Of a stretch of 64,000 bases of DNA, positions 42,874 to 58,400 are shown in pieces. Numbering within the stretch: position 1 is the first letter of the stretch; each line of letters opens with the position of its first letter. A program made the translations under genes and the position numbers. Origin of the DNA: Duganella sp. BuS-21 (lineage in GTDB: Bacteria; Pseudomonadota; Gammaproteobacteria; Burkholderiales; Burkholderiaceae_D); assembly GCA_041874725.1 (NCBI GenBank), contig CP097466.1, positions 248,001 through 312,000 on the forward strand. Reading direction: 5' to 3'. Below the pieces are notes generated by a model. The model was not told where the DNA came from. It saw nothing but the letters and a program-made list of their open reading frames with translations, and did no database searches.

Positions 42874-44541
42874 TCAGTGTGCGGTATGTGCGTCTACGTC
42901 CAGATAGCGCCAGTTGGTGAATTCCACCGGGTGGCGCCGATAATTTTTCAGCCAGGGCTGCTGTAAATCGGCGGAAATGGGATGCGTCAACAGCACCCAT
43001 GGCGTGTAAGCGTGAATAATTTGCGCGAGCTCATCATACAGGGCCGTGCGCTGCGGCGATTCTCCCATCTGGCGCGTTTGCTCGTAGCGCGCATTGTAGG
43101 CAGGAAGGTTGAAACGCGCGTAATTGGCGCGTCCGGCGTTCGGGCCGTACAGCAATTGATAGAAATTATCGCCGTCGGGGAAATCGGCCACCCAGTTGGT
43201 TTCGAACATCATCACCGCGCCCAGGCGCGAGGCCTTGATGATTTCGGTCTTCTTGTCGCTCTTGAAGCGTACGTGCAGTCCGATGGCGTTCAGCTGCTTG
43301 CGCCACAGCTCGTCCCGCAAGCGACCGACGGTGGAGGACTCGCTGTGCATCACCAGCACCAGCGCCTTGCCGTCCGGCTGCGTGCGGTAGCCCTGTTGGT
43401 CCTTGCGATAGCCGTAGCGGTCCAGCAGGGCGTTGGCCAGCGTCGGGTCGTAAGCGACCGGGCTGCGGAAATTCGGGTTGTAGCCCAACACATTCGGCGG
43501 CAGCGGCGTGAGCGCCGGCAGGGCCAGGCCTTTCTTCATGGTCGCCACGTCCTCGGCGCGGTTGTAGGCCAGGGCAATGGCGCGGCGCAGGGCCACCTTT
43601 TCCCTGCTGTAGCCGCCGATCAGCGGATCGTCCATATTCATCCACATGTAATAGGTCTGCAGCACCGGGAACGGCGCGAGGACGATGCCTTTCGCGGCCA
43701 GTTCCGGCTTGAGCTTCGCATCCTCGGTGAGCACTATTTCCTTCATCGACTCCGGCAGCTGTTCCAGGAAATCGAATTCGCCATTCAAAAAGCCGAGCAC
43801 GCGCGACTGGTATTCCTCGACGATCTTGATGTCGATGCGATCGACGATCGGCAGGCGCTTGCCGGCGAACTCCATGGGCCGGAAGTCGCGGTTGGCCAGC
43901 AGGATGATCTGGTCGCTGTGTTTCCACGTACCGATCTTGAACGGGCCGGTGCCGACCGGGTGATTGCCGACCTGCGCGCCGTGCGTTTCCACCACCTCGC
44001 GCGCCACCACGCCGGTGGCCGGCATCGCCAGGTAGAACAGGAAATTGGGATCGGGCTTTTTGAGCACGATGCGCAGGGTGAATTTGTCGACGGCGACCAG
44101 CTCCGCCACACCGTCGAACAGGTACAGCCACGGCGACTTCAACGCCGGCTGATACAGGCGCTTGAAGCTGTAGACGTAATCTTCCGCCGTGACCTGCCGG
44201 CGCGCGGTGGTGAAGGCGGGATCCGGCGTGAAATAAATGTCCTGGCGCAGCTGGAAGGTGTAGCGCTTGCCGCCATCGTCCACCGTCGGCATGGCGGTCA
44301 GCGTGTTGGGCATCAGCTTGACCGGACGGGCCAGGTAGTCGTAGCGCAGCAAGGGGTCGAACAGGTTTTCCAACAGGCTGAGGCTGGCGACGTCGGAAGC
44401 TACGGCCGGGTCGAGCGCGGTTTCGCCGGTGCTGAGGAAGGCGTGCAGCACTTTGGGCTCAGCATCGGCTCCCGCGTGCGCGGGGGCGACGGCGGCCACC
44501 GCCAGCACTGCCGTTGCACAAATTTTCAGCATCCTTTGCAT
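42874..44541 (-). CDS. Peptide-type ABC transporter substrate-binding protein
   Basis: Family 5 (DppA/OppA-like) solute-binding protein of 555 aa. The signal peptide MQRMLKICATAVLAVAAVAP ends at an AHA-G site. The domain follows with LDPAVASDVASLSLLENLFD, YVYSFKRLYQPALKSPW and VGTGPFKIGTWKHSDQI. No permease or ATPase genes are adjacent, so it is an orphan receptor or works with a distant transporter. The cleavage-site segment is encoded by a REP unit (44456-44490). Ligand unknown; murein or other peptides are possible. Confidence 0.88.
   Translation of the reverse strand: MQRMLKICATAVLAVAAVAPAHAGADAEPKVLHAFLSTGETALDPAVASDVASLSLLENLFDPLLRYDYLARPVKLMPNTLTAMPTVDDGGKRYTFQLRQDIYFTPDPAFTTARRQVTAEDYVYSFKRLYQPALKSPWLYLFDGVAELVAVDKFTLRIVLKKPDPNFLFYLAMPATGVVAREVVETHGAQVGNHPVGTGPFKIGTWKHSDQIILLANRDFRPMEFAGKRLPIVDRIDIKIVEEYQSRVLGFLNGEFDFLEQLPESMKEIVLTEDAKLKPELAAKGIVLAPFPVLQTYYMWMNMDDPLIGGYSREKVALRRAIALAYNRAEDVATMKKGLALPALTPLPPNVLGYNPNFRSPVAYDPTLANALLDRYGYRKDQQGYRTQPDGKALVLVMHSESSTVGRLRDELWRKQLNAIGLHVRFKSDKKTEIIKASRLGAVMMFETNWVADFPDGDNFYQLLYGPNAGRANYARFNLPAYNARYEQTRQMGESPQRTALYDELAQIIHAYTPWVLLTHPISADLQQPWLKNYRRHPVEFTNWRYLDVDAHTAH
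44456..44490 (-). repeat. REP unit (family A) inside a coding sequence
   Basis: Read on the minus strand: GTCGCCCCCGCGCACGCGGG, then AGCCGATGCTGAGCC. It matches the unit and flank at 35806 at 32 of 36 positions and encodes the residues VAPAHAGADAEP around the predicted signal-peptidase site. Confidence 0.75.
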
Positions 44542-44630: not shown

Positions 44631-45869
44631 ATGTCGCTCAATTACATCTGGTCTGGCTTCTTCCTGGTGGGATTCCTGGCCGCGTTGGCGCAGTTCCTGT
44701 TCATGGGCGACACGGAAATCTTCAAGCGCATCATCGACGGCACGTTCGACTCCGCCCGCACCGGCGTGATGGACATCGCCCTGCCGCTGGCCGGTGTGAT
44801 GACGCTGTGGCTCGGCATCATGAACATCGGCGAGAAAGCCGGCGCCATCGACCTGCTGGCCAAGCTGATCGCGCCGTTCTTCTCGCGCATCTTCCCCGGC
44901 GTGCCGTCGAACCACCCGGCCACCGGCCACATGGTGATGAACTTCTCGGCCAACCTGCTGGGCCTGGACAACGCCGCCACGCCGTTCGGCCTGAAGGCCA
45001 TGGAAAGCCTGCAAACGCTCAATCCCAACAAGGACGAACCGACCGATGCGCAGATCATGTTCCTGGTGCTGCACACCTCGGGCCTGACCTTGATCCCGCT
45101 GGCCATCATGGCGCAGCGCTCGATCCTCGGTGCGGCCGATCCGTCCGACATCTTCATTCCCTGCATGGTGGCGACCTATGTGGCGACCATGACCGGCATC
45201 ATCGCCGTCTCGATCCGCCAGCGCATCAACCTGTTCAACCGCGTGGTCGTGGGCTGGCTGGGCGGCATCACCGCCTTCATCGCGCTGGTGATCTGGTACT
45301 TCACGCAGTATTTGACCAAGCCGGAAATCGAGGTCGTCTCCAAGGTGTTCAGCAATTTCGTGCTGATTGCGGTGATCGGCGGTTTCATCATCGGCGCGTT
45401 GCGCAAGAAGGTGAACGTCTACGAAGCCTTTATCGAAGGCGCCAAGGGCGGCATCCAGACCTCCATCACCGTGATTCCGTATTTGGTCGGCATGCTGGTG
45501 GCGATCAGCGTGGTGCGCAACGCCGGCCTGCTGGGCTTTGTGGTGCAGGGCTTCAGCTGGCTGTTCAGCTTCCTGGGCGTGAACACCGACTTCGTGCCGG
45601 CGCTGCCGACCGCGCTGATGAAGCCACTGAGCGGCAGCGCCGCCAAGGCCATGATGATCGACACCATGCAAACCTACGGCGTCGATTCCTTCGTCGGTCG
45701 CCTGGCTTGCGTGTTCCAGGGTTCGGCCGATACCACCTTCTACATCGTCGCGCTGTATTTCGGCTCGGTCGGCATCCGCAAGACGCGCTACGCGATCTCC
45801 TGCGGCCTGATCGCCGACTTCGCCGGCGTGATTGCTGCGATTGCGATTTCCTATGTCTTCTTCTACTAA
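44631..45869 (+). CDS. SpmA-SpmB fusion (spore maturation/nucleoside-recognition membrane protein)
   Basis: 412-aa membrane protein with two Gate-type domains. The SpmA-like half contains GVMDIALPLAGVMTLWLGIM and PATGHMVMNFSANLLGLDNA; the SpmB-like half begins near residue 230 with FIEGAKGGIQTSITVIPYLV and PLSGSAAKAMMIDTM. Bacillus encodes SpmA and SpmB separately; fused forms occur in Gram-negatives that do not sporulate. Its last 17 bp overlap the start of dacB, so the two are translationally coupled. Substrate unknown. Confidence 0.88.
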   Translation: MSLNYIWSGFFLVGFLAALAQFLFMGDTEIFKRIIDGTFDSARTGVMDIALPLAGVMTLWLGIMNIGEKAGAIDLLAKLIAPFFSRIFPGVPSNHPATGHMVMNFSANLLGLDNAATPFGLKAMESLQTLNPNKDEPTDAQIMFLVLHTSGLTLIPLAIMAQRSILGAADPSDIFIPCMVATYVATMTGIIAVSIRQRINLFNRVVVGWLGGITAFIALVIWYFTQYLTKPEIEVVSKVFSNFVLIAVIGGFIIGALRKKVNVYEAFIEGAKGGIQTSITVIPYLVGMLVAISVVRNAGLLGFVVQGFSWLFSFLGVNTDFVPALPTALMKPLSGSAAKAMMIDTMQTYGVDSFVGRLACVFQGSADTTFYIVALYFGSVGIRKTRYAISCGLIADFAGVIAAIAISYVFFY

Positions 45870-47358
45870 GTTGTTGCGCCGCCTGGTTGCTGGTTCGCTG
45901 CTTGGCGCGCTGCTGGCGGCTGGCGTGCAGGCGGCGGAACTGCCGGAACCGGTGGCGCGGCTGATGCAATCTTCCGGCATACCGCCGGAAGCGGCCGGCA
46001 TCGTCGTCATACGCGGCGACGCCACGCTGGTCGCGCACAATGCGCAACTCAGCATGCAGCCGGCCTCGACCATGAAGCTGTTCACGGCGATGACGGCGCT
46101 GGAGTTGCTTGGCCCGGTATTCCGCGGCCGCACCGAATTCCGCAGCAGCGCGGAAGTGGTCAACGGCGTCCTGCAGGGCGACCTGATACTGCGTGGCGGC
46201 GCCGATGCCGATTTCAACGAGGATGCGCTGTCGCACATGCTGGAAGCGCTGCGCAACCAGGGCATCCGCAAGATCAAGGGCGATATCGTGGTGGACCGCC
46301 TGCTGTTCCAGCCCTCGCGGCCGGATGCCGGGCAGCCGCCGTTTGATGAATATCCCTGGGCCTACTACAACGTCATCCCGAACGCGGCGCTGCTCAACAC
46401 CAATCTGCTGAAAGTCGAGCTACGCTCGACCGGCGACAAGCTCTCGCTGGTGATGATGCCGGAGCTGGACAAGGTCGGCATCCGTTCGGAGATGAAGCTG
46501 AGCGACGCGCCCTGCGCCGCCTGGGAAAACGGCTGGCGCTCGCCGGACTACACGCGCAAGGGCGAGCGCATCGAAGTCGTCCTGCACGGCAGCTTCCCCA
46601 AGGACTGCGTGAAATCGACCAGCATCAACGTCCTCGATAGCCAGGATTACCTGGCCCGCCTGCTGCTGGCGGAATGGCGCAAACAGGGCGGTAGCCTGAG
46701 CGGCGAAGTGCGCGAAGCGATACTCCCGAACGCCGCAACGCCAGCGCCGATCGCACCGCTCACCCGCCTGCTGGCCGAACACGTTTCCCGCACGCTGCCC
46801 GAAGTCCTGCGCGACACCAACAAACAATCCGACAACACGCTGGCGCGCACCATTTTCCTCAGCCTTGGCAGCCTGGAAACCGATCCCGCGCTGGGCAGCC
46901 GCCCACTGGCCGCCGACGGCGCGCAAGCCAGCACCGCCATGCGCGCCGAAACCACCATCCGCGCCTGGCTGCAGCAGCACAACATCGACGGCAACGGCCT
47001 GGTGCTGGACAACGGCTCCGGCCTGTCGCGCACCGAACGCGCCACGCCGGCGCAACTGGCCGGCGTGCTGCAAGCGGGCCTGAAAAGCCTGTGGATGCCG
47101 GAATTCCTGGCCAGCCTGCCGATCGCCGCCACCGACGGCACCCTGCGCCGCCGCCTGACAGACAGCCCTGCCGCCCAACGCGCGCGCCTGAAAACTGGTA
47201 GCCTGAAAGGCGTGATCGCAATTGCCGGCTACGTCCAGGACGCCAACAAGCAAGCCTGCATCGTGGTCGCCATCCTCAACGACGAGCACGTCGCCAACGG
47301 CGCCGGCCGCGCCGTACTCGACGCGCTGGTCGACTGGGTGGCCCGCAGCGGAAACTGA
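45853..47358 (+). CDS. dacB: D-alanyl-D-alanine carboxypeptidase/endopeptidase DacB (PBP4-type, S13)
   Basis: Periplasmic penicillin-binding protein that trims pentapeptides and cuts crosslinks. From MSSSTKLLRRLVAGSLLGAL it is 501 aa, with a signal peptide. SxxK is S72-T-M-K75 in PASTMKLFTAM, SxN is in KQSDNTLARTIF, and KTG in RLKTGSLKGVIA: all catalytic motifs are present. The insertion domain expected in PBP4 separates the first two. It lies at the left end of the beta-lactam/cell-wall block and releases D-Ala and crosslinked peptides relevant to the recycling genes. Confidence 0.95.
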   Translation: MSSSTKLLRRLVAGSLLGALLAAGVQAAELPEPVARLMQSSGIPPEAAGIVVIRGDATLVAHNAQLSMQPASTMKLFTAMTALELLGPVFRGRTEFRSSAEVVNGVLQGDLILRGGADADFNEDALSHMLEALRNQGIRKIKGDIVVDRLLFQPSRPDAGQPPFDEYPWAYYNVIPNAALLNTNLLKVELRSTGDKLSLVMMPELDKVGIRSEMKLSDAPCAAWENGWRSPDYTRKGERIEVVLHGSFPKDCVKSTSINVLDSQDYLARLLLAEWRKQGGSLSGEVREAILPNAATPAPIAPLTRLLAEHVSRTLPEVLRDTNKQSDNTLARTIFLSLGSLETDPALGSRPLAADGAQASTAMRAETTIRAWLQQHNIDGNGLVLDNGSGLSRTERATPAQLAGVLQAGLKSLWMPEFLASLPIAATDGTLRRRLTDSPAAQRARLKTGSLKGVIAIAGYVQDANKQACIVVAILNDEHVANGAGRAVLDALVDWVARSGN

Positions 47359-47371
47359 CAAGGAGCACACC

Positions 47372-48349
<978 letters not shown>

Positions 48350-48367
48350 AAATACTCACATCGCTGC

Positions 48368-48397
48368 TTGACTCGATTGCGACAGTTGTCGCACAAT
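48368..48397 (+). promoter_or_regulatory. Promoter with palindromic operator for the BlaR1-like/ampC pair
   Basis: TTGACT (48368-48373) and CACAAT (48392-48397) form a sigma70-like promoter with 18-bp spacing. The spacer is almost filled by a perfect dyad TGCGACA-GT-TGTCGCA (48378-48393), and a similar half-site CAACAGTCGCA follows at about 48403-48413. The layout is that of a repressor operator, as expected for BlaI-type control, but no blaI gene is in the window. Confidence 0.6.
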
Positions 48398-48425
48398 AGT
48401 GGCAACAGTCGCAGTGGAGCATCCC

Positions 48426-50183
48426 TTGGTTATCCTTAGCACCTTCTACACAGGCATCGACCTGCTGGCCTACCGCTTTGCATTGGCCAGCGGCGGCTGC
48501 CTGGCCGCCGGATTCGGCGTATGGGCGGCGATGACGCTGTGCCGGCGCTGGCTGCCTGGCGTCGCCGCGCAGCGTTCGGTGTGGCTGCTGGCCCAGGTCA
48601 CCATCTTCGCGGCTTTCCTGCTGATCCTGCTGCCGCAGGGCGAGCGCCTGCGCGTGCTGCCGCCCATCGACATCGAAGAATTCTCCGCGCATGCTGCAAG
48701 CGCCACCGCCGTAATCGACGCCGACGCCAAGCCCGCCACGCAGGCGATCGCGGAAACCAGCACGAGCGACTATCTCGCCACCGCCGCGCAAGGCTGGCTG
48801 CTGCTGTACGCGGCAGGCCTCGGCTACACCTTGATCCAGCTGCTGCGCACCCGGCGCGCGCTGCACGCCCTGGCCGCTGCCGGCGACAAAACCGATGACC
48901 AGCCGATGGACCTGATCGAAGTCGACGCGCCCATCTCGCCGATGCTGTTTGGCCTGTTCCGCCCACGCCTGCTGCTGCCGCTGCACCTGCGCGGCTTCGA
49001 CCAGGACCAGCGCCAGATGGTCGTCGAACACGAGCTGACGCACTGGCGCCGCCACGACCTGCAATGGACCAGCGCCGGCATCCTGCTGCAAACCCTGCTC
49101 TGGTTTAATCCCTTCGTGCGCCTCCTGCGCCTGCAACTGTCATGGGCGCAGGAACTGGGCTGCGACCGCGAAGTGCTGCGCGGCCGCGCAGCCAGCCAAC
49201 GCAAGGCCTATGCCGCCGCCCTGGTCGCGCAACTGAAACTGCAGCAGACCACGATGTCGATACCTATCGCACTCGCCTTCGGCAACCTCACGCCAACTAC
49301 GCTGGCCGCGCGCATTGCGCTGATCCGCAGCCCGGCCGGAACGCCACGTGGACCGTGGACGCGCATCGCCGCACTGGCCGGCCTGTGCGCCGTGCTGGCA
49401 GCCAGTCTCGCCTTGCAGCCGACGCTGGCCTCGCAAAGCACTGCGCCGCTATCCTGCACCACGCTGGTGGACGCCGCCAGCGGACAGCGCCTGCGCCACG
49501 AAGGCCAATGCGGTCACCGTGCCACGCCGGCGTCCACCTTCAACATCGTGGTCAGTTTGATGGGCTACGACAGCGGCATCCTGATCGACGAGCACGCGCC
49601 GTTGATGCCGTTCAAAACTAGCTACACCGACTCGACGCGTGAGGACTGGCGTGCCGACACCGATCCATCCACCTGGATCAAAAACTCCACCGTCTGGTAC
49701 GCGCAGCAGGTCACCACGCAAATCGGCGAGGCACGCTTTCAGCGCTACATTCGCAATTTCGGCTACGGCAATGCCGATCTCTCCGGCGACGCCGGCGCGC
49801 ACAACGGCCTTACCCAATCGTGGATCGGCTCCTCCTTGCAGATTTCAGCGGACGAGCAAACCGACTTCCTGCGCAAGCTGGTCAACCGCCAGTTGCCGAT
49901 ATCGGCCAAGGCATATGAGATGACCAGCCGCATCCTGCATCCGCAAACGCTGGGCAACGGCTGGACCATCCACGGCAAGACCGGCACTGCGTCACCGGTG
50001 CTCTCCAACGGCAGCGACGACCCGGAGCGACAATACGGTTGGTACGTCGGCTGGGCCACCAAGGGCACGCGAACCATCGTATTCGCCCGCATGACGCTCG
50101 ACCACCGACAGCAAGACTACGCCGGACCACGCGCCAAACAAACCTTCCTGCGTGATGTCGCCACGCAGCTCGACACACTGTAG
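48426..50183 (+). CDS. BlaR1-like M56 metalloprotease fused to a class D beta-lactamase-like sensor domain
   Basis: Membrane sensor-protease of BlaR1/MecR1 layout (585 aa). TTG at 48426 has GGAG six bases upstream; a GTG nine codons earlier is the alternative. Four membrane segments: about 10-35, 50-70, 115-140 and 315-335. The M56 zinc site is HELTH (202-206) with the third ligand in ELGCD (E243). The C-terminal periplasmic domain has class D features: FGYGN (YGN 447-449), SWIGSSLQISADEQ, GKTG (KTG 518-520) and YGWYVGW. The active-site SxxK is S370-T-F-N373, so the lysine is Asn (codon AAC, 49542). In known BlaR1 and OXA proteins this Lys is essential for acylation. The protein may bind ligands non-covalently or slowly, or may have a different signal. 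ampC follows 46 bp later. Confidence 0.85.
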   Translation: MVILSTFYTGIDLLAYRFALASGGCLAAGFGVWAAMTLCRRWLPGVAAQRSVWLLAQVTIFAAFLLILLPQGERLRVLPPIDIEEFSAHAASATAVIDADAKPATQAIAETSTSDYLATAAQGWLLLYAAGLGYTLIQLLRTRRALHALAAAGDKTDDQPMDLIEVDAPISPMLFGLFRPRLLLPLHLRGFDQDQRQMVVEHELTHWRRHDLQWTSAGILLQTLLWFNPFVRLLRLQLSWAQELGCDREVLRGRAASQRKAYAAALVAQLKLQQTTMSIPIALAFGNLTPTTLAARIALIRSPAGTPRGPWTRIAALAGLCAVLAASLALQPTLASQSTAPLSCTTLVDAASGQRLRHEGQCGHRATPASTFNIVVSLMGYDSGILIDEHAPLMPFKTSYTDSTREDWRADTDPSTWIKNSTVWYAQQVTTQIGEARFQRYIRNFGYGNADLSGDAGAHNGLTQSWIGSSLQISADEQTDFLRKLVNRQLPISAKAYEMTSRILHPQTLGNGWTIHGKTGTASPVLSNGSDDPERQYGWYVGWATKGTRTIVFARMTLDHRQQDYAGPRAKQTFLRDVATQLDTL

Positions 50184-50220
50184 CAAACCACCACCAACCA
50201 CCACCACCCACCACCAACCA
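50184..50220 (+). repeat. ACC-rich repeat tract in front of ampC
   Basis: Thirty-seven bases of A and C only (apart from the first), built from ACCACCA units, fill the gap between the BlaR1-like stop and the ampC ribosome site GGAG at 50221. Such a leader would be unstructured in mRNA. Confidence 0.6.
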
Positions 50221-50229
50221 GGAGCAACC

Positions 50230-51372
50230 TTGTCTACATTAAGCCGCATGGCCTTGGCCATCGCAGCGTGCTGCTGCACGCCCGTCGTCGTCGCCGCAGA
50301 TCTGCAAACCGTGGTCGATCAGGCGATCCAACCCATCCTCAAGCAGTACGACGTGCCGGGCATCGCCGTCGGCGTCACCGTCAACGGCAAAGCCGCCTTC
50401 TTCAACTACGGCCTGGCGTCGAAGGAGAGCGGCACGCCGGTCAGCCAGGCGACGCTGTTCGAACTGGGCTCGGTCAGCAAGACCTTCGCCGCCACGCTGG
50501 TGTCTTACGCGGTGGTGCAGGGCAAGCTGTCGCTGGCCGATCATCCTAGCCGCTACCTGCCCAAGCTGAAAGGCAGCGCGCTCGATATGGCCACAGTGCT
50601 GCACTACGGTACCTACACCGCCGGCGGCCTGCCGCAGCAGTTCCCGGACAACGTGGAGAACAGCGAACAGGGCATGCTTGATTACTATGGCAAGTTCCAG
50701 CCCACGGCGGCGCCAGGCGTGATACGCCAGTATTCGAATCCTAGCCTCGGCATGTTCGGCCACCTGGGCGGCCTGGCGCTGAAGGCCGATCCGGCCGAGG
50801 TGCTGGAAAAGCAGATCCTGCCGAAACTTGGCATGAGCACCACGTATCTGCGCATACCGGAAAGCGCGATGGCCAACTACGCGTGGGGCTACTCGGATAG
50901 CGGCAAGCCGCGCCGCATGAACGAAGCGTTGTTTTACGTGTCCACCTACGGCGTGCGGTCGAACACCGCCGACATGATCCGCTACGTGCAGGCGAATATC
51001 GATCCGAGCCAGCTGGATGTCACCTTGCGGCGCGCGATCGAGGGCACGCACATCGGCTACTTCCAGATCGGCCCCATGACGCAGGGACTGGGCTGGGAAC
51101 AATACGCTTATCCGGTGTCGCTGGATGCGCTGCGCGCAGGGAACTCCAGCACCATGAGCCGCCAGCCTAATCCCGCCAAGCTGCTGACGCCGCCGAAGCC
51201 GGGCGCCGATAGCACCTGGTACAACAAGACCGGTGCCACCGGCGGCTTTAGCAGCTACGTCGCGTTTGTGCCGTCCAAGAAAATCGGCATCGTGATCCTG
51301 GCGAACCGGAATTATCCGATCGAGGAACGCCTCAAGGCCGCGCACACGATCCTGTCGCAGCTGGAGGACTAG
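50230..51372 (+). CDS. ampC: Class C beta-lactamase
   Basis: Periplasmic serine beta-lactamase (380 aa from a TTG at 50230, GGAG five bases upstream; an internal ATG at 50248 is the alternative). Signal peptide MALAIAACCCTPVVVAA. Class C motifs: S81-V-S-K84 in GSVSKTF, Y168-S-N170 in RQYSNPSLGMFG, and K333-T-G in YNKTGATGGFSSY; TYTAGGLPQQFPDNV is the typical Q120 region. All catalytic residues are present. No ampR lies next to it; instead it follows the BlaR1-like gene and shares its promoter. The stop overlaps the convergent ddpX stop by 4 bp. Confidence 0.93.
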   Translation: MSTLSRMALAIAACCCTPVVVAADLQTVVDQAIQPILKQYDVPGIAVGVTVNGKAAFFNYGLASKESGTPVSQATLFELGSVSKTFAATLVSYAVVQGKLSLADHPSRYLPKLKGSALDMATVLHYGTYTAGGLPQQFPDNVENSEQGMLDYYGKFQPTAAPGVIRQYSNPSLGMFGHLGGLALKADPAEVLEKQILPKLGMSTTYLRIPESAMANYAWGYSDSGKPRRMNEALFYVSTYGVRSNTADMIRYVQANIDPSQLDVTLRRAIEGTHIGYFQIGPMTQGLGWEQYAYPVSLDALRAGNSSTMSRQPNPAKLLTPPKPGADSTWYNKTGATGGFSSYVAFVPSKKIGIVILANRNYPIEERLKAAHTILSQLED

Positions 51373-51983
51373 AGCACGCGCGTGTAATGCTGGCGCACAT
51401 GCTGACGGTCGCCGCAATCGAAATGCCACCATTCGCTGTTGATGCCTTGCCAGCCGTTGTGCCGCATGGCGTCACGCAGCCAGCGGCGGTTTTCGATGTG
51501 CTGGGCACTGAGTTCTCCGCGCGCCAGCAGCGCGGCTTCCAGCGCGGGATGCGAGCGTTCACTCAAGTCGTCGAAGCCGGTGCCCATGTCCAGCTCACGG
51601 CCGTGCGCGTCCAGCAGCGTGAGGTCGAGCGCCATGCCGAAGGAATGGATAGAGCCGCGTTCCGGGTCGGCGATGTAGCTCAGCAGGTCGGTGCCTTGCA
51701 GCGCGTCCCACAGCTGCTCCTGCACGCGTTGGGGACGCAGCGCGTCCAGCACCAGCAGCTTGTATTCGGGCTTGCGCGCGGTCAGCCATGCGACAGCCTG
51801 CGCCAGCGCGGCGGCGGCGTCCCTGTGCAGCCAATGACAATCGAGCGGGGAGTAAAGATCGCGGCCGACGAAGTTGTCGGCCGTGGCGTAGCGCAGGTCG
51901 ACCGCGATGCCTGCGATGCTGTCCAGCCGGCGGAAATCAGGATGGCCGGGGATCGCTTCACAGGGGACGGCCGGAGCGCTCAT
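51369..51983 (-). CDS. ddpX: D-alanyl-D-alanine dipeptidase (VanX/DdpX type)
   Basis: Zn-dependent M15D dipeptidase of 204 aa hydrolysing D-Ala-D-Ala. The SxHxxGxAxD motif is SIHSFGMALD (H113, D120), the second zinc motif EWWH (E184, H187), and the transition-state Arg is R83 in DALRPQRV. No signal peptide, so cytoplasmic. In glycopeptide-resistant Gram-positives VanX removes the drug target; in Gram-negatives the enzyme is linked to D-Ala salvage, which fits this recycling operon. Last gene of the operon; overlaps the amidase gene by 4 bp. Confidence 0.93.
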   Translation of the reverse strand: MSAPAVPCEAIPGHPDFRRLDSIAGIAVDLRYATADNFVGRDLYSPLDCHWLHRDAAAALAQAVAWLTARKPEYKLLVLDALRPQRVQEQLWDALQGTDLLSYIADPERGSIHSFGMALDLTLLDAHGRELDMGTGFDDLSERSHPALEAALLARGELSAQHIENRRWLRDAMRHNGWQGINSEWWHFDCGDRQHVRQHYTRVL

Positions 51984-52831
51984 CGTGCTTCGGGCGGTGC
52001 CGCTGGCGTGATGGGAACACTTGGTACGACGGGCACAGGGCTGGTCAGCACATCGAGCAGCGCCGCCGTCTCCGCATCCGGCGTGCCGTCGTATTGCGAG
52101 GGGCGGTACTTGGTCTGGAACACCGAGATCACGTTGCGCGTGGCCTGATCGAGTTCACCGTTCTGCGGCACCGCGTAGCCCACCTCCGCCAGCTTGCGCT
52201 GGAACCAAGGCAGATCCGGCAGCTGCTCCATAAAGCCCGGCACGCGCGCCAGGACGCGGCTAGCTTCCGGCCACGTAATCAGGCCGGCGTCGGCCAGCTG
52301 CTTCCACGGGAACAGCGGACCAGGGTCCTGCTTGCGCTGCGGTGCGATGTCGTTGTGGCCGAGGATATTCCCCGGCGCGATATTGCGGCGCTTGACGATG
52401 TCCTTCAACAGCACAATCAGCTGATCGATCTGCGCCTGCGGGAACGGCGCATACACGCGCCCCTGCTCCGTTTCCTTGAAGCCCGGATTCACGATCTCGA
52501 TACCAATCGACGCGGAATTGAGCTGGTTGTAAATCTTCCAGCTGCTGATGCCGGCATGGTTCGATTGGCGCGCTTCATCCACCAGCGTGTAGAAGAAAGG
52601 CTGCTCCGTATCCGTCAGCAGATAGTGCGCGCTGACGTCGCCGGTGGACAAGGTCTTGATGGAACGCGGCAGGTCGCTCACCGTGTAATGCAGGATCACA
52701 TACTTGATGCGCTCACTCTGCCCGCGCGCAGACAGCGTGTGGTCCAGGCGCGGCTGCGCCGGCGGCGGCACCGTGGCGCAACCGGTGAGCGCGGCCGCCA
52801 TGGCGATGGCGAGGAGGGGAACAATCTTCAT
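51980..52831 (-). CDS. amiD: Lipoprotein N-acetylmuramoyl-L-alanine amidase (AmiD-like)
   Basis: Amidase_2 enzyme that cuts the bond between (anhydro)MurNAc and the stem peptide. From MKIVPLLAIAMAAALTGCAT (lipobox LTGC, Cys18) it is 283 aa. Zinc-site segments are KYVILHYTVS, SNHAGISSW and LGHNDIAPQRKQDPGPLFPW; IGIEIVNPG is typical. The C-terminus has a PG_binding_1-like domain with LDQATRNVISVFQTKYRPSQ, then a Pro-rich tail. As in E. coli AmiD, it is probably anchored in the outer membrane. It overlaps ddpX and follows the kinase gene by 20 bp. Confidence 0.9.
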   Translation of the reverse strand: MKIVPLLAIAMAAALTGCATVPPPAQPRLDHTLSARGQSERIKYVILHYTVSDLPRSIKTLSTGDVSAHYLLTDTEQPFFYTLVDEARQSNHAGISSWKIYNQLNSASIGIEIVNPGFKETEQGRVYAPFPQAQIDQLIVLLKDIVKRRNIAPGNILGHNDIAPQRKQDPGPLFPWKQLADAGLITWPEASRVLARVPGFMEQLPDLPWFQRKLAEVGYAVPQNGELDQATRNVISVFQTKYRPSQYDGTPDAETAALLDVLTSPVPVVPSVPITPAAPPEAR

Positions 52832-52851
52832 GGGTGGTCTCGGCGATCGAT

Positions 52852-53751
52852 TCAATGAGGGGAGTGTAGAGCAATCCGCGCCGCCGCGTGGTGCGCCAAT
52901 GTATGCCGCTGCGTCATCGACAACTCGGCAGGCAGTCCGGCGCGCATGCTCTGCGCGATCAGCGGATGCAGTTGTGCGGCGCGGCCGCCCAGTGCAATCG
53001 GCCGCGCGCCATAGCGGCCCACCAGCGCCAGCGCAATCCGCGCCAACTCGTTGCCGGCGCGTTCCAGAATATTGCGCGCTACTGGATCGGTATCCGCGCT
53101 GGCGGCGACGGCCAGCGCCAGCTGCCCGATGGCGCCGCGATCCTGCCCGTAGATGAACTGGCGCGACAGCGACCAGTCACTGCCGCCGATCTGCGCAAAC
53201 ACCGTGCGCGCCATGGCCGATTGCTGCCAGACGCCGGGCTGCTCGTCCTCCGCCCGCCAGATATGGCGCATGGCTTCGCGCGCGATCCAGAAACCGCCGC
53301 CGCCGTCATCAAGTGTGACGCCACGCCCGCCGGCGCGATGGAACTGGCCAGCGCCGTCGATCCACGCGGCGATCGAGCCGGTGCCGGCGTAAACCAGATA
53401 GCCCTCGCCCGGCGCAAAGCTGTCCAGGTAGGCGATCTCCACGTCGTTGCGCATGCCGATGGCCGACGGCGGAAGTTTCAGCATCTCGGCCAGCATCTGC
53501 GTGGCATGGGTGCCGACGCCATCGAAACCGGTAAGGCCCGCGCACACGCGCACCGGAGCGCCGGCGGCCAGCACCTGCGTCGCCAGCATGGCGAAGATGC
53601 CGCGCACCGCATCGCGGCCGGCGGTGCTGCCCATCTGCGTGGCCGACATGCCGGCCACGCTGCCCTCGGCCACAATGGCGCCACCCGCGTCAGCCAGCGC
53701 CCAACGGGTTTGCGTGCCTCCTGCATCGATGCCCAGACCGAGATCGCTCAT
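52852..53751 (-). CDS. BadF/BadG-family amino-sugar kinase (GlcNAc/MurNAc kinase candidate)
   Basis: ASKHA-fold kinase of 299 aa. Phosphate-1 motif LGLGIDAGGTQTRWALAD, CAGLTGFDG, and AGTGSIAAW with GGRGVTLDDGGGGFWIA are the family signatures. The ATG at 53751 has GGAG six bases upstream and is preferred to a TTG two codons earlier. The family includes GlcNAc kinases and clostridial MurK, which phosphorylates MurNAc and GlcNAc. With murQ in the same operon, producing MurNAc-6-phosphate is the attractive role (inference). Confidence 0.87.
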   Translation of the reverse strand: MSDLGLGIDAGGTQTRWALADAGGAIVAEGSVAGMSATQMGSTAGRDAVRGIFAMLATQVLAAGAPVRVCAGLTGFDGVGTHATQMLAEMLKLPPSAIGMRNDVEIAYLDSFAPGEGYLVYAGTGSIAAWIDGAGQFHRAGGRGVTLDDGGGGFWIAREAMRHIWRAEDEQPGVWQQSAMARTVFAQIGGSDWSLSRQFIYGQDRGAIGQLALAVAASADTDPVARNILERAGNELARIALALVGRYGARPIALGGRAAQLHPLIAQSMRAGLPAELSMTQRHTLAHHAAARIALHSPH

Positions 53752-53753
53752 CT

Positions 53754-55445
53754 TCAACTCCGTGAATTGACGTTATTAATGTTATAGATGTGGATGCGTT
53801 CACTTTCATTGCCAAGGCGGTCGACCGCGCTGACCACCACCAATTGCGCCGCGCCGCCGGCCGCGTCATCGGCCAGCAGCAGCACCGGACGCGAGGCCGG
53901 CGCCACCGCGAAGCGCCACTCGGCGCCGTAGCGCGACCAGATCGCATAGTGCGCCACCGGCCTGCCCGTATTGGGGGACAGGCGCAGGGCCACGCCATTG
54001 CTGTCGCGCCGCGCCGCCGCCTGCGGTGCGGCCGGCGCTTCCGCGCCCAGCCACGGCGTGGCCGGCGTCAGCGCGGCGGTCTGGTACATCTGCGATTTCA
54101 ATTGATCGGCGATGCCTTTGCGGTTTTCCATCAGCGCCGCGATGGAGAAGTGCAGGTGGCCGCGCACGCCGGCGCGGCTGCGCGTGACGCCGATCTGCTT
54201 GACGATTTCCTCCGGCGCGAAGGCCTTGAGGCTGTTGTCGATGCGGCTGGTGTACAAGCCAGGCCAGACGTGGCGTGCGCGCGTGTTCTGCGCCAGCCAA
54301 TAGTCGAGCAGCACGTCGAAGGCTTGCGGCGCTTGCGACACCGGCCAATACAGCTGCGGCGCCAGGTAATCGAGCCAGCCGTTGGCCAGCCACAGTTCGG
54401 CGTCCGCATACAGCTTGTCGTACTGGCTGAAGCCAATGATGCCGGCCGGACGCCGGTCCGGGCGGCCAATGCCGAAGGGGCTGATGCCGAATCGCACCCA
54501 GCTCTTTTCGCGGCGGATGCCGAGGTACATCGCCTCGATCAGCGAATTGACGTTCTGGCGGCGCCAGTGCGCGCGGTCCAGCGTGCCGCCGTTGAGCAGG
54601 TAGTTCTGCCACGAGCGTTGGTCCGGGAACTCCAGCTCCTGGCGCGTGCCGACGCCGCCATCGAGCGCCACGCCTTCCGGCCCGGCCGCATTCGGCGTAT
54701 CGATCGGATAGGGATAGAAGTAATCGTCGATGTGCACGCCGTCGATGTCGTAGCGGCGCACCACGTCGAGCACCACGTCCAGCGTGCGCTGCGAGGCGGC
54801 GGATTCGCCCGGGTCCATCCACAGGTAGCGGCCATAGGACTTGACCACGTCCGGTTGCGTGCGGCCGATGTGGTTGGCGGCCAGCGGCGACTTGGCCGTG
54901 GCATGGCGCGCGCGATAGGGATTGAACCAGGCATGCAGCTCCAGCCCGCGCGCGTGCGCCTGCTCGATCCAGAACTGCAGCGGATCCCACGGCTGCGCCG
55001 GCGCGCGGCCCTGCTGGCCGGTGAGGAATTCCGACCACGGCTCCAGCTCGGACGGATAGATCGCGTCGGCGCTCGGCCGCACCTGCAGCACGATGGCGTT
55101 CAGGTTCAGCGCCTTGGCGCGGTCGAGTATGGCCAGCGCTTCGGTTTGCTGCTTGGCCATGGTCAGGTTGCTGCGGCTCGGCCAGTCGATATTCGCGACG
55201 GTTGAGACCCAGGCGGCGCGGAATTCGCGCGGCGCGGGCGGCGGCGTGTTCGGATCGGCGGCGGCCGGCGGCGCGGACGTGCCCGGCCGCGCCGGTTCAG
55301 GCGGACGGGATGGCGATGCACCGGCGCCCGGAGCCGATGCGGGCACCGGCGCCGTCGGCGTACTGGAACATCCTTCAAGCAGCGCCGCCACACCAGCCGC
55401 TACGCCGGCCGACAAGGTCAGCCGCTTCTTCGCATTAAAAACCAA
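53754..55445 (-). CDS. GHL10 glycosidase lipoprotein (DigH/YngK-like)
   Basis: Glycosyl-hydrolase-like family 10 protein (563 aa). The TTG at 55445 has GGAG seven bases upstream; a GTG two codons earlier sits too close. The signal sequence ends LEGC (an atypical lipobox with Glu at -2), then about 45 residues rich in Pro and Ala, and then the barrel from REFRAAWVSTVANIDWPSRS with LNAIVLQVRPSADAIYPSEL, LELHAWFNPYRA, DIDGVHIDDYFYPYP and YLAPQLYWPVSQ. E. coli DigH of this family cleaves denuded peptidoglycan glycans. A C-terminal beta domain follows. It precedes the kinase gene by 2 bp. Confidence 0.88.
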   Translation of the reverse strand: MVFNAKKRLTLSAGVAAGVAALLEGCSSTPTAPVPASAPGAGASPSRPPEPARPGTSAPPAAADPNTPPPAPREFRAAWVSTVANIDWPSRSNLTMAKQQTEALAILDRAKALNLNAIVLQVRPSADAIYPSELEPWSEFLTGQQGRAPAQPWDPLQFWIEQAHARGLELHAWFNPYRARHATAKSPLAANHIGRTQPDVVKSYGRYLWMDPGESAASQRTLDVVLDVVRRYDIDGVHIDDYFYPYPIDTPNAAGPEGVALDGGVGTRQELEFPDQRSWQNYLLNGGTLDRAHWRRQNVNSLIEAMYLGIRREKSWVRFGISPFGIGRPDRRPAGIIGFSQYDKLYADAELWLANGWLDYLAPQLYWPVSQAPQAFDVLLDYWLAQNTRARHVWPGLYTSRIDNSLKAFAPEEIVKQIGVTRSRAGVRGHLHFSIAALMENRKGIADQLKSQMYQTAALTPATPWLGAEAPAAPQAAARRDSNGVALRLSPNTGRPVAHYAIWSRYGAEWRFAVAPASRPVLLLADDAAGGAAQLVVVSAVDRLGNESERIHIYNINNVNSRS

Positions 55446-55495
55446 AACCACTCTCCACTTCAGTTGAGATCGTATTGTAATGGCTGTCTTGCCGC

Positions 55496-56755
55496 TTATG
55501 CTCGGCCGAATTTCTCCGGTATCCGCACCAGGGCGGTCATGGCGAACGCGGGCAGGGTGGAAATGCAGGCCCAGAGGAAGAAGGTCTGGTAGCCGAGCTG
55601 TTGCTGTATCCAGCCGCTGACCATGCCAGGCAACATCATGCCGAGGGCCATGAAACCGGTGCAGATGGCGTAATGGGCGGTCTTGTGCTCGCCATCGGCC
55701 ACCAGCACCATGTACAGCATGAAGGCGGCGAAGCCGAAACCGTAGCCGAACTGCTCCACCGCCAGACAGGCCGAGATCAGCACCAGCTTACTCGGCAGCG
55801 CCGAAGCCAGGTAGACGAACACCAGGTCGGGCACGTGCATGATGAACACCATCGGCAGCAGCGCACGCTTGAGGCCGAAGCGCGACACCACCACGCCGCC
55901 GGCTAGTCCACCGGCCACCAGCGCGCACACGCCGATGGTGCCGTAGACCAGGCCGAATTCCGACGTGGTCAAGCCCAGGCCGCCCTTGTCGCGCGGATCG
56001 AGCAGGAAGGGCGCAGCCATTTTCAACAGCTGTGCCTCACCCAGACGGTACAGCAGCAGGAAACCGAGCGTGGCCAGAATGCCGGGCTTCTGGAAAAAAC
56101 TGCGGAAAGTATGGACAAAATCCTGCCACAGCGCGCCGCCGCTGCTATGGCGGCGGTCGGCATCCGGGCGCGGCAGGATCAACTGGTGATAGCCGCACAG
56201 CGCCAGGAACGCGACCGCCATCAAGGCGAACACCACCGACCAGGCATGCGCCGGATCGCCGGTCGACTTGATCAACTCGCCGGCGATGTACACCAGCCCG
56301 CCTTGGCCGCCGATCATGGCCAGCTTGTAGAACGCACTGCGCACGCCGACGAAAGCGGCCTGCTGCCGCTGGGTGGGCAGGCCCAGCATGTAAAAGCCGT
56401 CGGAAGCGATATCGTGGGTGGCGGAGCTGAAGGCCATCAGCCAGAAGATCACCAGGGTCCAGCGGAAGAAATCCGGCGCGTGCAAGGTCAGCGCAATGGC
56501 GGCCAGGCCGGCGCCGCCGACCAGCTGCATCCACACCGTCCAGCGCCGCTTGGTGCCGAACATCTCCACGATGGGCGACCATAGCGGCTTGACCACCCAA
56601 GGCAGATACAGCCACGCCGTATAAAACGCCAGGTCGGCATTGGAAATGCCGAGGTTCTTGTACATCACGGTCGACAACATCATCACCGCCACATACGGCA
56701 CGCCCTGTCCAAACGACACACTGGGCACCCAACTCCAGGCACTACGTTGTTGCAT
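55496..56755 (-). CDS. ampG: AmpG-like muropeptide MFS permease
   Basis: Major-facilitator permease of 419 aa with about 12 membrane segments. SFGQGVPYVAVMMLSTVMYK, LPWVVKPLWSPIVEMFGTKR and FSSATHDIASDGFYMLGLP are close to AmpG motifs (the DIA-DG element in helix 4). The start at 56755 has GGAG five bases upstream. It is shorter than the 490-aa E. coli AmpG. It probably imports GlcNAc-anhydroMurNAc or free amino sugars for the murQ and kinase genes. Confidence 0.85.
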   Translation of the reverse strand: MQQRSAWSWVPSVSFGQGVPYVAVMMLSTVMYKNLGISNADLAFYTAWLYLPWVVKPLWSPIVEMFGTKRRWTVWMQLVGGAGLAAIALTLHAPDFFRWTLVIFWLMAFSSATHDIASDGFYMLGLPTQRQQAAFVGVRSAFYKLAMIGGQGGLVYIAGELIKSTGDPAHAWSVVFALMAVAFLALCGYHQLILPRPDADRRHSSGGALWQDFVHTFRSFFQKPGILATLGFLLLYRLGEAQLLKMAAPFLLDPRDKGGLGLTTSEFGLVYGTIGVCALVAGGLAGGVVVSRFGLKRALLPMVFIMHVPDLVFVYLASALPSKLVLISACLAVEQFGYGFGFAAFMLYMVLVADGEHKTAHYAICTGFMALGMMLPGMVSGWIQQQLGYQTFFLWACISTLPAFAMTALVRIPEKFGRA

Positions 56756-56777
56756 ATGAACTCCAGAGTCGGGCAAC

Positions 56778-57656
56778 TTATTTCAGCGCGTCGCGGACGT
56801 TGCCGTGGGTGCGCTCAAGCAGGGCTTGCGCGTTCTCTACCGTTTGTTGTTTGAGCAGCATGACGATGGCGACTTTGACCTGGTATTGGCATTGTTCCAG
56901 CGCGACGCGTGCCGTGCCGGCGTCGGCGCCGGTGGCGTGCATGGTGAGGCGGATGGTGCGCTCGGTCAGCTTGACGTTGGTCGCCTGCAGATCGACCATC
57001 AGATTGCCGTAGACTTTGTTCAGCCGCACCATGACGGCGCTCGACAACGTATTCAACACGATTTTCTGCGCCGTGCCGGCCTTCAGGCGCGTGCTGCCGG
57101 AGATGACTTCCGGGCCGGTGTCGAGGCAGATGCCGATGTCCGCGCCGGCCAGCAGTGGCGTGGCGGCGTTGTTGGCGATGCTCACCGTCAGCGAGCCCAC
57201 CGTGCGCGCCGCCTGCATCGCACCCAGCACATAGGGCGTGGTGCCGGAGGCGGCCACCAGCAGCACGACATCGTTGTAGGTGGGATAAAGCAGCCGCAGG
57301 TCGGCGGCGCCCTTGTTGCGGTCATCCTCCGCACCTTCAACCGCTTCGAACATCGCACCCAGACCGCCGGCCAGCAAGGCCACGGCCCGTTGGTGCGGCC
57401 AGGAGAAGGTCGGATACAGCTCAACACTGTCAAGGATGCCCAGCCGTCCCGAGGTGCCGGCGCCCACATAGATCAGCCGCCCACCGGCCGCGATGCGCGG
57501 CGCCATCGCCTGCACCGCCGCGCTGATGCTGGCCGAGGCCGCCTTTACGGCCTGCACCGCCTGCGCCTGGTCGTCGACCAAGGCGGCAACCAGGTCCTCT
57601 ACCGGATAGAGGTCCAGTTCCGTATGTTGCGTACTCGGCGTCTCGGTCTTGAGCAT
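56778..57656 (-). CDS. murQ: N-acetylmuramic acid 6-phosphate etherase MurQ
   Basis: Cleaves MurNAc-6-phosphate to GlcNAc-6-phosphate and D-lactate. The SIS-domain protein (292 aa) has LIYVGAGTSGRLGILDSVEL, YPTFSW, EDDRNKGAADL, VAASGTTPYVLGAM and GSTRLKAGTAQKIVLNTLS, the full set of family motifs. It begins 3 bp after the GntR regulator stop and is the first enzyme gene of the operon. Free MurNAc must first be phosphorylated; the BadF-type kinase downstream is the candidate. Confidence 0.96.
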   Translation of the reverse strand: MLKTETPSTQHTELDLYPVEDLVAALVDDQAQAVQAVKAASASISAAVQAMAPRIAAGGRLIYVGAGTSGRLGILDSVELYPTFSWPHQRAVALLAGGLGAMFEAVEGAEDDRNKGAADLRLLYPTYNDVVLLVAASGTTPYVLGAMQAARTVGSLTVSIANNAATPLLAGADIGICLDTGPEVISGSTRLKAGTAQKIVLNTLSSAVMVRLNKVYGNLMVDLQATNVKLTERTIRLTMHATGADAGTARVALEQCQYQVKVAIVMLLKQQTVENAQALLERTHGNVRDALK

Positions 57657-57659
57657 GGA

Positions 57660-58400
57660 TCAGGTGGCGCGGCGCATTTCGGCCACAAAGTCGTAGTGGT
57701 CGCTGTGGCAATAGGAATGGGTCAGCTCCATCGCCTCGCCCGATTCCAGATAGGCGATCCGGGTGATGTACAGCAGCGCCTGGCCCTCCGGCACCCCCAG
57801 CTGCTGCGCCAGGTCGGCCGAGGCGTTCATGGCGCGGATGTGCTGCAGCGCGCGCGCCGGCGATCTGCCGATGCTGTCGAGATACTGGTACAGCGAATTG
57901 CCGACGGCGTTGGGGTCGTTCAGCACCGTCTGCGGCAGCACCGATACCTCATAGGCCATCACCACATCATCGGCCAGGCGCAGGCGCTCCAGCCGGGCCA
58001 CCTTGGAATACGGCGACAGGCCCAGGCTCAGCTGTTCCTCCGGCGTCGGCGTCACCACCGCGCGCTTGAGCCAGCGCGAACCGGGAATGTGGCCACGCTG
58101 CTGCAATTGCTCCGAAAAACTGGTGAGGTTGGACAGCGGCTGCTCGATGCGGGGCGCAATATAATTGCCCGATCCGCGACGGCGCACCACCAGTCCCTGG
58201 TCCACCAACTGATCGATTGCCTTGCGCGCGGTGACCCGCGAAACGTTCAACAGCTCCGACAAGGTCCGCTCGGACGGCAGCGCCTGATCGACCTGGTAAC
58301 GGCCGTTCAGCACATCGTCGCTTAATTTGCGGGCAATTTGCATGTACAACGGCGAACTGTCGTTGGCGTCCGCCTTGAATTCAAAACTGGTCTGGCTCAT
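57660..58400 (-). CDS. GntR/UTRA regulator of the cell-wall recycling operon
   Basis: 246-aa HutC-subfamily regulator. The winged helix is SPLYMQIARKLSDDVLNGRY to VSRVTARKAIDQLVDQGLV; the UTRA effector domain starts near residue 90 with SFSEQLQQRGHIPGSRWLKR. NagR/DasR-like members bind GlcN-6-P or GlcNAc-6-P, which is the product of MurQ, so feedback by the pathway product is likely. A GAGGAG ribosome site precedes the ATG. Confidence 0.9.
   Translation of the reverse strand: MSQTSFEFKADANDSSPLYMQIARKLSDDVLNGRYQVDQALPSERTLSELLNVSRVTARKAIDQLVDQGLVVRRRGSGNYIAPRIEQPLSNLTSFSEQLQQRGHIPGSRWLKRAVVTPTPEEQLSLGLSPYSKVARLERLRLADDVVMAYEVSVLPQTVLNDPNAVGNSLYQYLDSIGRSPARALQHIRAMNASADLAQQLGVPEGQALLYITRIAYLESGEAMELTHSYCHSDHYDFVAEMRRAT

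What the first reader, a model, noticed from the sequence alone, without database searches (positions are those of the whole stretch)
45853..58400. A combined peptidoglycan-recycling and beta-lactam response island
Seen: dacB, a BlaR1-like/OXA fusion and ampC on the plus strand converge on a minus-strand operon GntR/UTRA - murQ - ampG-like - GHL10 - BadF kinase - AmiD-like amidase - ddpX, with overlapping or near-overlapping junctions. Known: AmpG, AmiD, DigH-type GHL10, MurQ and VanX/DdpX each act on wall fragments. Inference: outer-membrane lipoproteins digest denuded strands and peptides, the permease imports sugars, kinase plus MurQ feed GlcNAc-6-P to the GntR effector site, and DdpX recovers D-Ala. 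nagZ, anmK and ampR are not here, so sensing may bypass the classical AmpR route.
Basis: partly seen in the sequence, partly recalled or inferred. Interest (0 to 1): 0.75.

Follow-up and report, generated by a model that had tools for sequence, protein, structure and literature searches.

The report
Wall-sugar operon beside beta-lactam sensor
A soil-type bacterium carries a conserved set of genes for using cell-wall sugar next to a separate penicillin-response pair whose likely repressor gene lies about 2.5 million bases away and whose sensor has lost a lysine that related penicillin-destroying enzymes need.

Summary
The genes are as described, plus a missed aldo/keto reductase. They form two modules, not one island. 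(1) gntR-murQ-ampG2-GHL10-murK-AmpDh2/AmiD amidase-ddpX is a muropeptide/MurNAc catabolic operon, conserved in Duganella, Massilia, Janthinobacterium and relatives and, in part, in other Burkholderiales families, three loci with nagA-nagB in line. It holds the only MurQ found in the genome; AnmK, canonical AmpG and a NagZ-like GH3 lie elsewhere. (2) M56-OXA/ampC sits beside it only in some Duganella (11 of 68 full-length named loci). Its promoter has a palindrome found exactly twice in 6.49 Mb; the other copy fronts a blaI paired with an M56::M23 fusion. In 20 of 20 other M56-OXA loci read, blaI is adjacent and carries this operator; here blaI is missing and control probably passed in trans to the remaining BlaI. 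The sensor's class D motif is STFN, not STFK (118 of 120 listed homologues; the other two SIFN), while six of six non-sensor OXAs in neighbouring genes keep K. Engineered loss of that lysine traps acyl-enzymes, so this looks like a natural acyl-trap sensor. New variant of known kinds; the 'combined' idea is not supported, the wall-sugar operon is.

The parts
57660..58400 (-). GntR/UTRA (HutC-type) regulator, first gene of the mur operon
   Evidence: GntR-family models, all below their cut-offs; 57% identical to the GntR of the genome's own nag operon
56778..57656 (-). murQ, MurNAc-6-P etherase; only MurQ found in the genome
   Evidence: NF003915 364.6 bits, cut-off 168; one match in G000 at E <= 1e-20
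55496..56776 (-). AmpG-like MFS permease (AmpG2); likely ATG start at 56755
   Evidence: TIGR00901 179.8 bits, below cut-off 350; canonical AmpG is at C1:1308439 with 460.5 bits
53754..55451 (-). GHL10 glycan-strand cutting enzyme, likely lipoprotein (lipobox LEGC read by eye)
   Evidence: PF02638 186.4 bits; best solved relative Cwp19 5oq2, E 1.5e-73
52852..53757 (-). BadF/NagK/MurK-type sugar kinase, here called MurK; ATG start at 53751
51980..52855 (-). AmpDh2/AmiD-type amidase with PG-binding domain, likely lipoprotein (LTGC by eye); likely ATG start at 52831
   Evidence: PF01510 + PF01471; AmpDh2 4bpa E 6.2e-86
51369..51983 (-). ddpX/VanX-like D-Ala-D-Ala dipeptidase, no signal peptide seen by eye
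   Evidence: PF01427 115.9 bits; 1r44 VanX E 2.3e-15, SxHxxGxAxD and EWWH kept
48368..48373 (+). -35 box TTGACT of the M56-OXA/ampC promoter
   Evidence: by eye
48378..48393 (.). BlaI-type operator O1, TGCGACA-GT-TGTCGCA, between -35 and -10
   Evidence: exact motif twice in 6,489,671 bp; 25-64 bp before blaI in 50 of 50 blaI loci read, 26 exact, 16 with 1 and 8 with 2 mismatches
48400..48413 (.). imperfect second operator-like site O2, TGGCAACAGTCGCA
   Evidence: recurs in most of the aligned promoters (by eye)
48426..50183 (+). BlaR1-like sensor: M56 metalloprotease (HELTH) fused to a class D domain whose SxxK motif is STFN
50230..51372 (+). ampC, class C beta-lactamase, 46 bp behind the sensor gene (TTG start)
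   Evidence: NF033085 497.2 bits, cut-off 415; 5e2h E 3.4e-122
45853..47358 (+). dacB (PBP4); neighbour of the mur operon in 64 of 68 full-length named loci
47372..48349 (+). aldo/keto reductase; neighbour in 24 of 68, no evident role
42874..44541 (-). family 5 solute-binding protein (peptide ABC type); neighbour in 52 of 68
   Evidence: PF00496

Best explanation
Two separate modules lie tail to tail. Module 1 is a GntR-linked muropeptide/MurNAc catabolic operon: an AmpDh2/AmiD-type amidase strips peptides, a GHL10 enzyme cuts the naked strands, AmpG2 imports the sugars, MurK phosphorylates MurNAc, MurQ gives GlcNAc-6-P + D-lactate, NagA/NagB (elsewhere here, in line with murQ in three f38 relatives) finish the job, and DdpX recovers D-Ala. 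The same MurQ would also drain MurNAc-6-P made by AnmK. Module 2 is a BlaI/BlaR1-type beta-lactam switch: BlaI represses the sensor-ampC unit through O1/O2; acylation of the M56-OXA sensor activates its protease, BlaI is inactivated and AmpC rises. The sensor's Asn in place of the carboxylated Lys should block deacylation, so a bound beta-lactam stays on. In this Duganella subclade the sensor's own blaI is missing and the repressor is supplied in trans from the blaI-M56::M23 locus. Shown here: gene content, conservation, operator copies, Asn conservation, absence of a linked blaI. Inferred: enzyme activities, transport, GntR control, trans repression, acyl trapping.
Confidence: 0.72

Rival explanations
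1. One reading: one functional island in which wall-fragment catabolism and the beta-lactam response are coupled, by shared control or by a muropeptide signal.
For: Adjacency in this genome and in 11 of 68 named loci. In B. licheniformis a cytoplasmic wall dipeptide binds BlaI and helps induction (abstract and one section of PMC3305447), so a link is chemically possible.
Against: The pair is beside the operon only in Duganella; 53 of 68 loci lack even ampC, and in 20 other M56-OXA loci read no mur operon is near. O1 occurs once in the window, not before the mur operon.
Confidence: 0.12
2. The mur operon serves recycling of the cell's own wall rather than feeding on foreign wall.
For: It holds the only MurQ found while AnmK is near universal in the family (190 of 195), so AnmK's product may need it; AmpG, AnmK and a GH3 with the NagZ loop are all in the genome.
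Against: A kinase for free MurNAc, lipoprotein-type enzymes and, beside the operon in some relatives, TonB receptors, S66 LD-carboxypeptidase, VanY, a DAO-family oxidoreductase and a peptide-type SBP point to uptake from outside. In 133 of 195 family genomes no MurK was found at E <= 1e-20. Both uses can hold together. AmgK/MurU, another route, were not searched.
Confidence: 0.35
3. The BadF-type kinase is a GlcNAc or broad hexosamine kinase, not a MurNAc kinase.
Against: The genome has a kinase closer to NagK (190 bits, itself below the cut-off of 370) in the nag operon, only 28% identical to this one. MurK co-occurs with MurQ in 59 of 62 genomes. The lactyl-pocket position holds small residues A142-G143-G144 (read by eye against passages of PMC10465942).
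Confidence: 0.15
4. The M56-OXA protein is not a beta-lactam sensor: either a membrane-held beta-lactamase, a decayed copy, or a sensor of wall damage.
For: Its class D domain passes NF000270 (320.7 against 280), while BlaR1 model NF000326 is far below cut-off (145.1 against 400); the active-site lysine is missing.
Against: Ser370, Asn373, Ser421, YGN 447-449, Trp466, KTG 518-520 and the HE..H of M56 are invariant in 38 aligned proteins, which is not decay; the lysine loss argues against an efficient hydrolase; BlaI and its operator accompany the gene in relatives.
Confidence: 0.15

Closest known systems
Tannerella forsythia ampG/murTKQ operon (Tanf_08345-08385)
   Same: AmpG-like permease, MurNAc kinase and MurQ in one operon for external wall sugars (abstract and passages of PMC7670621, passages of PMC5388701 and PMC5790795)
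   Different: Here a GntR, GHL10 and AmpDh2/AmiD-type enzymes and DdpX; no MurT-like symporter in the window's operon; T. forsythia uses GppX and its printed gene list has no GHL10 or DdpX
Bacillus subtilis murQ-murR-murP-amiE-nagZ-namZ cluster (recalled; no call)
   Same: Strip, cut, import, phosphorylate, MurQ
   Different: PTS import and RpiR-type regulator there; MFS import plus soluble kinase and GntR here
BlaI/BlaR1 system of Staphylococcus and Bacillus (general features recalled)
   Same: M56 protease with C-terminal class D-like sensor, BlaI-family repressor, palindromic operator over the promoter
   Different: SxxN instead of SxxK; stands before a class C enzyme in a Gram-negative; repressor gene unlinked and paired with an M56::M23 protein
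Oxalobacteraceae M56-OXA proteins and class C/D fusions (PMC9045261, PMC5967600)
   Same: The same kind of protein and neighbours were reported (passages of the first; first of two parts of the second)
   Different: The text seen does not mention the lysine-to-asparagine change, the operator or the unlinked blaI; supplements were not readable
NagQ (GntR) N-acetylglucosamine regulon of betaproteobacteria
   Same: GntR paralogue, 57% identical, in the own nag operon, which has a TGGTATT-type repeat before nagK (motif from passages of PMC4494728)
   Different: No such repeat before the mur operon; MurQ/MurK in place of NagA/NagB in Duganella

Membership tests
BlaR1 beta-lactam sensor | M56 domain with HExxH | tested here: met
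   PF05569 108.5 bits, cut-off 31; HELTH at 202
BlaR1 beta-lactam sensor | C-terminal class D-like sensor fold | tested here: met
BlaR1 beta-lactam sensor | SxxK with carboxylated lysine | tested here: not met
   STFN
BlaR1 beta-lactam sensor | linked blaI | tested here: not met
   none adjacent in window, L016, L017; met in 20 of 20 other M56-OXA loci read
BlaR1 beta-lactam sensor | BlaR1 family model NF000326 cut-off | tested here: not met
   145.1 bits, cut-off 400
BlaR1 beta-lactam sensor | acylation triggers BlaI loss | not testable with these tools
   needs biochemistry
Class D beta-lactamase | family cut-off NF000270 | tested here: met
   320.7 against 280
Class D beta-lactamase | SxxK lysine | tested here: not met
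   Asn; so not filed as an active class D enzyme
BlaI-type operator | palindrome over the promoter of blaI and its target | tested here: met
BlaI-type operator | binding by BlaI | not testable with these tools
   needs gel shift
MurQ etherase | family cut-off | tested here: met
   NF003915 364.6/168, TIGR00274 302.1/302; 301.6, just under, in the six-frame search
MurK kinase | BadF-type kinase fold like solved MurK | tested here: met
MurK kinase | phosphorylates MurNAc | not testable with these tools
   enzyme assay needed
AmpG muropeptide permease | TIGR00901 cut-off | tested here: not met
   179.8 against 350; works-like claim only
AmpDh2/AmiD amidase | Amidase_2 + PG-binding domain, close to solved AmpDh2 | tested here: met
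DigH/GHL10 | GHL10 domain | tested here: met
   PF02638, Cwp19; hydrolytic or lytic mode unknown
DdpX dipeptidase | NF007557 cut-off | tested here: not met
   154.8 against 176; Pfam M15 cut-off met
Class C beta-lactamase | family cut-off | tested here: met
   NF033085 497.2/415
NagQ regulon | TGGTATT direct repeats before target | tested here: not met
   none before window gntR; 3 of 65 relatives with a related repeat

The most novel reading that the evidence does not exclude
One BlaI repressor integrates two different wall sensors in trans: a natural acyl-trap OXA sensor (Lys replaced by Asn) and an M56::M23 (LytM) protein that could sense peptidoglycan itself, so that ampC answers to both drug and wall state; the neighbouring wall-catabolic operon may tune the pool of wall peptides of the kind that BlaI binds in Bacillus licheniformis.
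Probability: 0.2. Interest if true: 0.82.

Novelty: new variant of a known kind. Interest (0 to 1): 0.55.

Why it matters
If true, (a) a widespread group of soil and plant bacteria has a dedicated operon for wall-sugar use that parallels the one in Tannerella but with other cutting enzymes and another regulator; (b) nature has fixed, in a whole family of sensors, the kind of lysine loss that crystallographers introduce to trap acyl-enzymes, which makes the question of how BlaR1-type sensors avoid destroying their own signal directly testable; (c) a bla switch has been split, with its repressor shared with a second, LytM-bearing sensor.

Tried and rejected
Rejected: 'NagZ-free recycling'. But the own genome carries a longer GH3 with the NagZ loop KHFPGHGDTNVDSH that passes the NagZ model cut-off (217.9 against 207), and GH3s read in six other genomes, one of them without MurK, show the same kind of loop, so NagZ function is probably kept. 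I also dropped the idea that the HGSNAT-type gene of relatives is MurT: MurT is a sodium symporter.

Led nowhere: operator of the mur GntR; solved relatives of the M56 part by sequence (none); a Foldseek PDB search was not accepted. A first BlaI tree had bad trimming and labels and was replaced. AmgK/MurU and AmpR were not searched. The listings of searches (capped at 10-25 rows; searches matched more papers than were listed) showed no paper on this operon, on the Lys-to-Asn change or on an unlinked blaI in these bacteria; the library lacks most subscription journals, and supplements were not readable.

Full report
What is there. The window lies at C1:248001-312000 of a 6.49 Mb single-contig genome whose kinase is closest to Duganella proteins. 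Added: an aldo/keto reductase at 47372-48349, and a sensor start at TTG 48426, because GTG 48399 lies within the promoter (by eye).

Module 1, the wall-sugar operon. Order on the minus strand is gntR, murQ, ampG2, GHL10, murK, amidase, ddpX, with short gaps or overlaps. In 40 loci taken from the 62 MurK-positive family genomes most of the order recurs, least in the more distant genera. In 80 named loci (the best 80 of 250), 68 of full length, counts by tblastn around murK are ampG2 68, amidase 68, GHL10 67, dacB 64, murQ 64, ddpX 62, gntR 58, peptide-type SBP 52, DAO-family oxidoreductase 39, LysR 34, serine hydrolase 26, HGSNAT-type membrane protein 21, ampC 15, M56-OXA 11. Gap genes in relatives also include S66 LD-carboxypeptidase, VanY, AstE-type and a LysA-like decarboxylase. 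An order-wide search found MurK in 18 of 399 genomes, 10 of them outside the family. Of those 10 neighbourhoods 7 keep GHL10 with murQ and/or ampG2; two keep GHL10 with the HGSNAT gene (in one the contig ends there); one keeps only the amidase. In the three f38 loci a NagA (TIGR00221 252, 266.8 and 236.9 bits, cut-off 225.65) and a NagB-II-like protein (252-265 bits, below cut-off 430) stand before murQ, and two of the three have the GntR in front. This ties the operon to GlcNAc-6-P catabolism.

Module 2, the split bla switch. The promoter before the M56-OXA gene holds TTGACT, then TGCGACA-GT-TGTCGCA, then a -10. This palindrome occurs exactly twice in the genome; composition predicts 0.025. 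With up to 2 mismatches the count, 35, is below the backward control of 48, so only the exact hits carry weight. The second copy lies 33 bp upstream of a blaI gene at C1:2759801-2760178, followed by an M56::M23 fusion and a TonB-dependent receptor. In all 50 blaI loci read (45 distinct genes) the motif stands 25-64 bp before the inferred blaI start: 26 exact, 16 with one and 8 with two mismatches. Partners there are an OXA domain in 25 loci, an M23 domain in 24, and in one short locus neither was seen. These 50 were all that searches gave; not every BlaI match was fetched. In 20 of 20 other M56-OXA loci blaI is directly upstream of the sensor; in G000, G166 and G188 it is not, yet the operator is perfect, and each of these genomes shows one BlaI ortholog at E <= 1e-15. 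The BlaI tree puts these three with G089's M23-partnered BlaI (99/97), while G089's other BlaI sits with OXA-partnered ones; the overall split of the two kinds is weakly supported, 57/0. All 11 named Duganella M56-OXA loci beside the mur operon keep the operator; in L166 the sensor was not detected but the operator precedes ampC; in L165, L171 and L189 ampC stands without it. Three other PF03965 genes exist, one of them weak, so the identity of the repressor is inferred, not shown.

Prior art. M56 + class D proteins in Oxalobacteraceae and their place beside class C/D fusions are in print (PMC9045261 passages; PMC5967600 first of two parts). The text seen does not report the Asn, the operator or the unlinked blaI. 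A wall dipeptide that binds BlaI is known in B. licheniformis (abstract and one section of PMC3305447), which keeps a metabolic link between the modules possible, though nothing here supports one.

Verdict. The operon is a new variant of MurNAc/muropeptide catabolic clusters; the bla pair is a new variant of the BlaI/BlaR1 switch. They are neighbours in one part of Duganella, most simply by a recent juxtaposition.

Noticed in passing
L056:6017-10179 (G000 C1:2756016-2760178): BlaI next to an M56 protease fused to an M23 (LytM) peptidase, HxxxD and HxH motifs intact by eye, and a TonB-dependent receptor; a second, non-OXA kind of BlaR-like sensor, seen with blaI in 24 of 50 loci.
   Followed up: partly
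L154:7791-18728 (G000 C1:1973790-1984727): A nag operon with a GntR and an AmpG-like permease paralogous to those of the mur operon, plus a longer GH3 carrying the NagZ loop.
   Followed up: partly
195 family genomes: Canonical NagZ and MurK were never found together (0 of 62 against 110 of 133); 23 genomes have neither. Could be one change in one clade.
   Followed up: partly
L166:12406-13627 (Duganella sacchari): The sensor gene was not detected but promoter and operator stand directly before ampC.
   Followed up: partly
L054 (G040) and G120:C102: murK matches in two pieces and no murQ was found in either genome; both also have the only two STFK M56-OXA sensors seen.
   Followed up: no
L020:6967-8106 and 21 of 68 full-length named loci: An HGSNAT-type membrane protein (PF07786) sits between ampG2 and GHL10 in many relatives and in other families; its role in wall-sugar use is unknown.
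   Followed up: partly
L263:3319-7361, L265:5373-8225: TonB-dependent receptors (Pfam-checked) and, in L263, an S66 LD-carboxypeptidase lie beside murK in other families, suggesting uptake of external wall fragments.
   Followed up: partly
window 48400-48413: A second imperfect operator-like site directly downstream of O1 recurs in most aligned promoters; cooperative binding is possible.
   Followed up: partly
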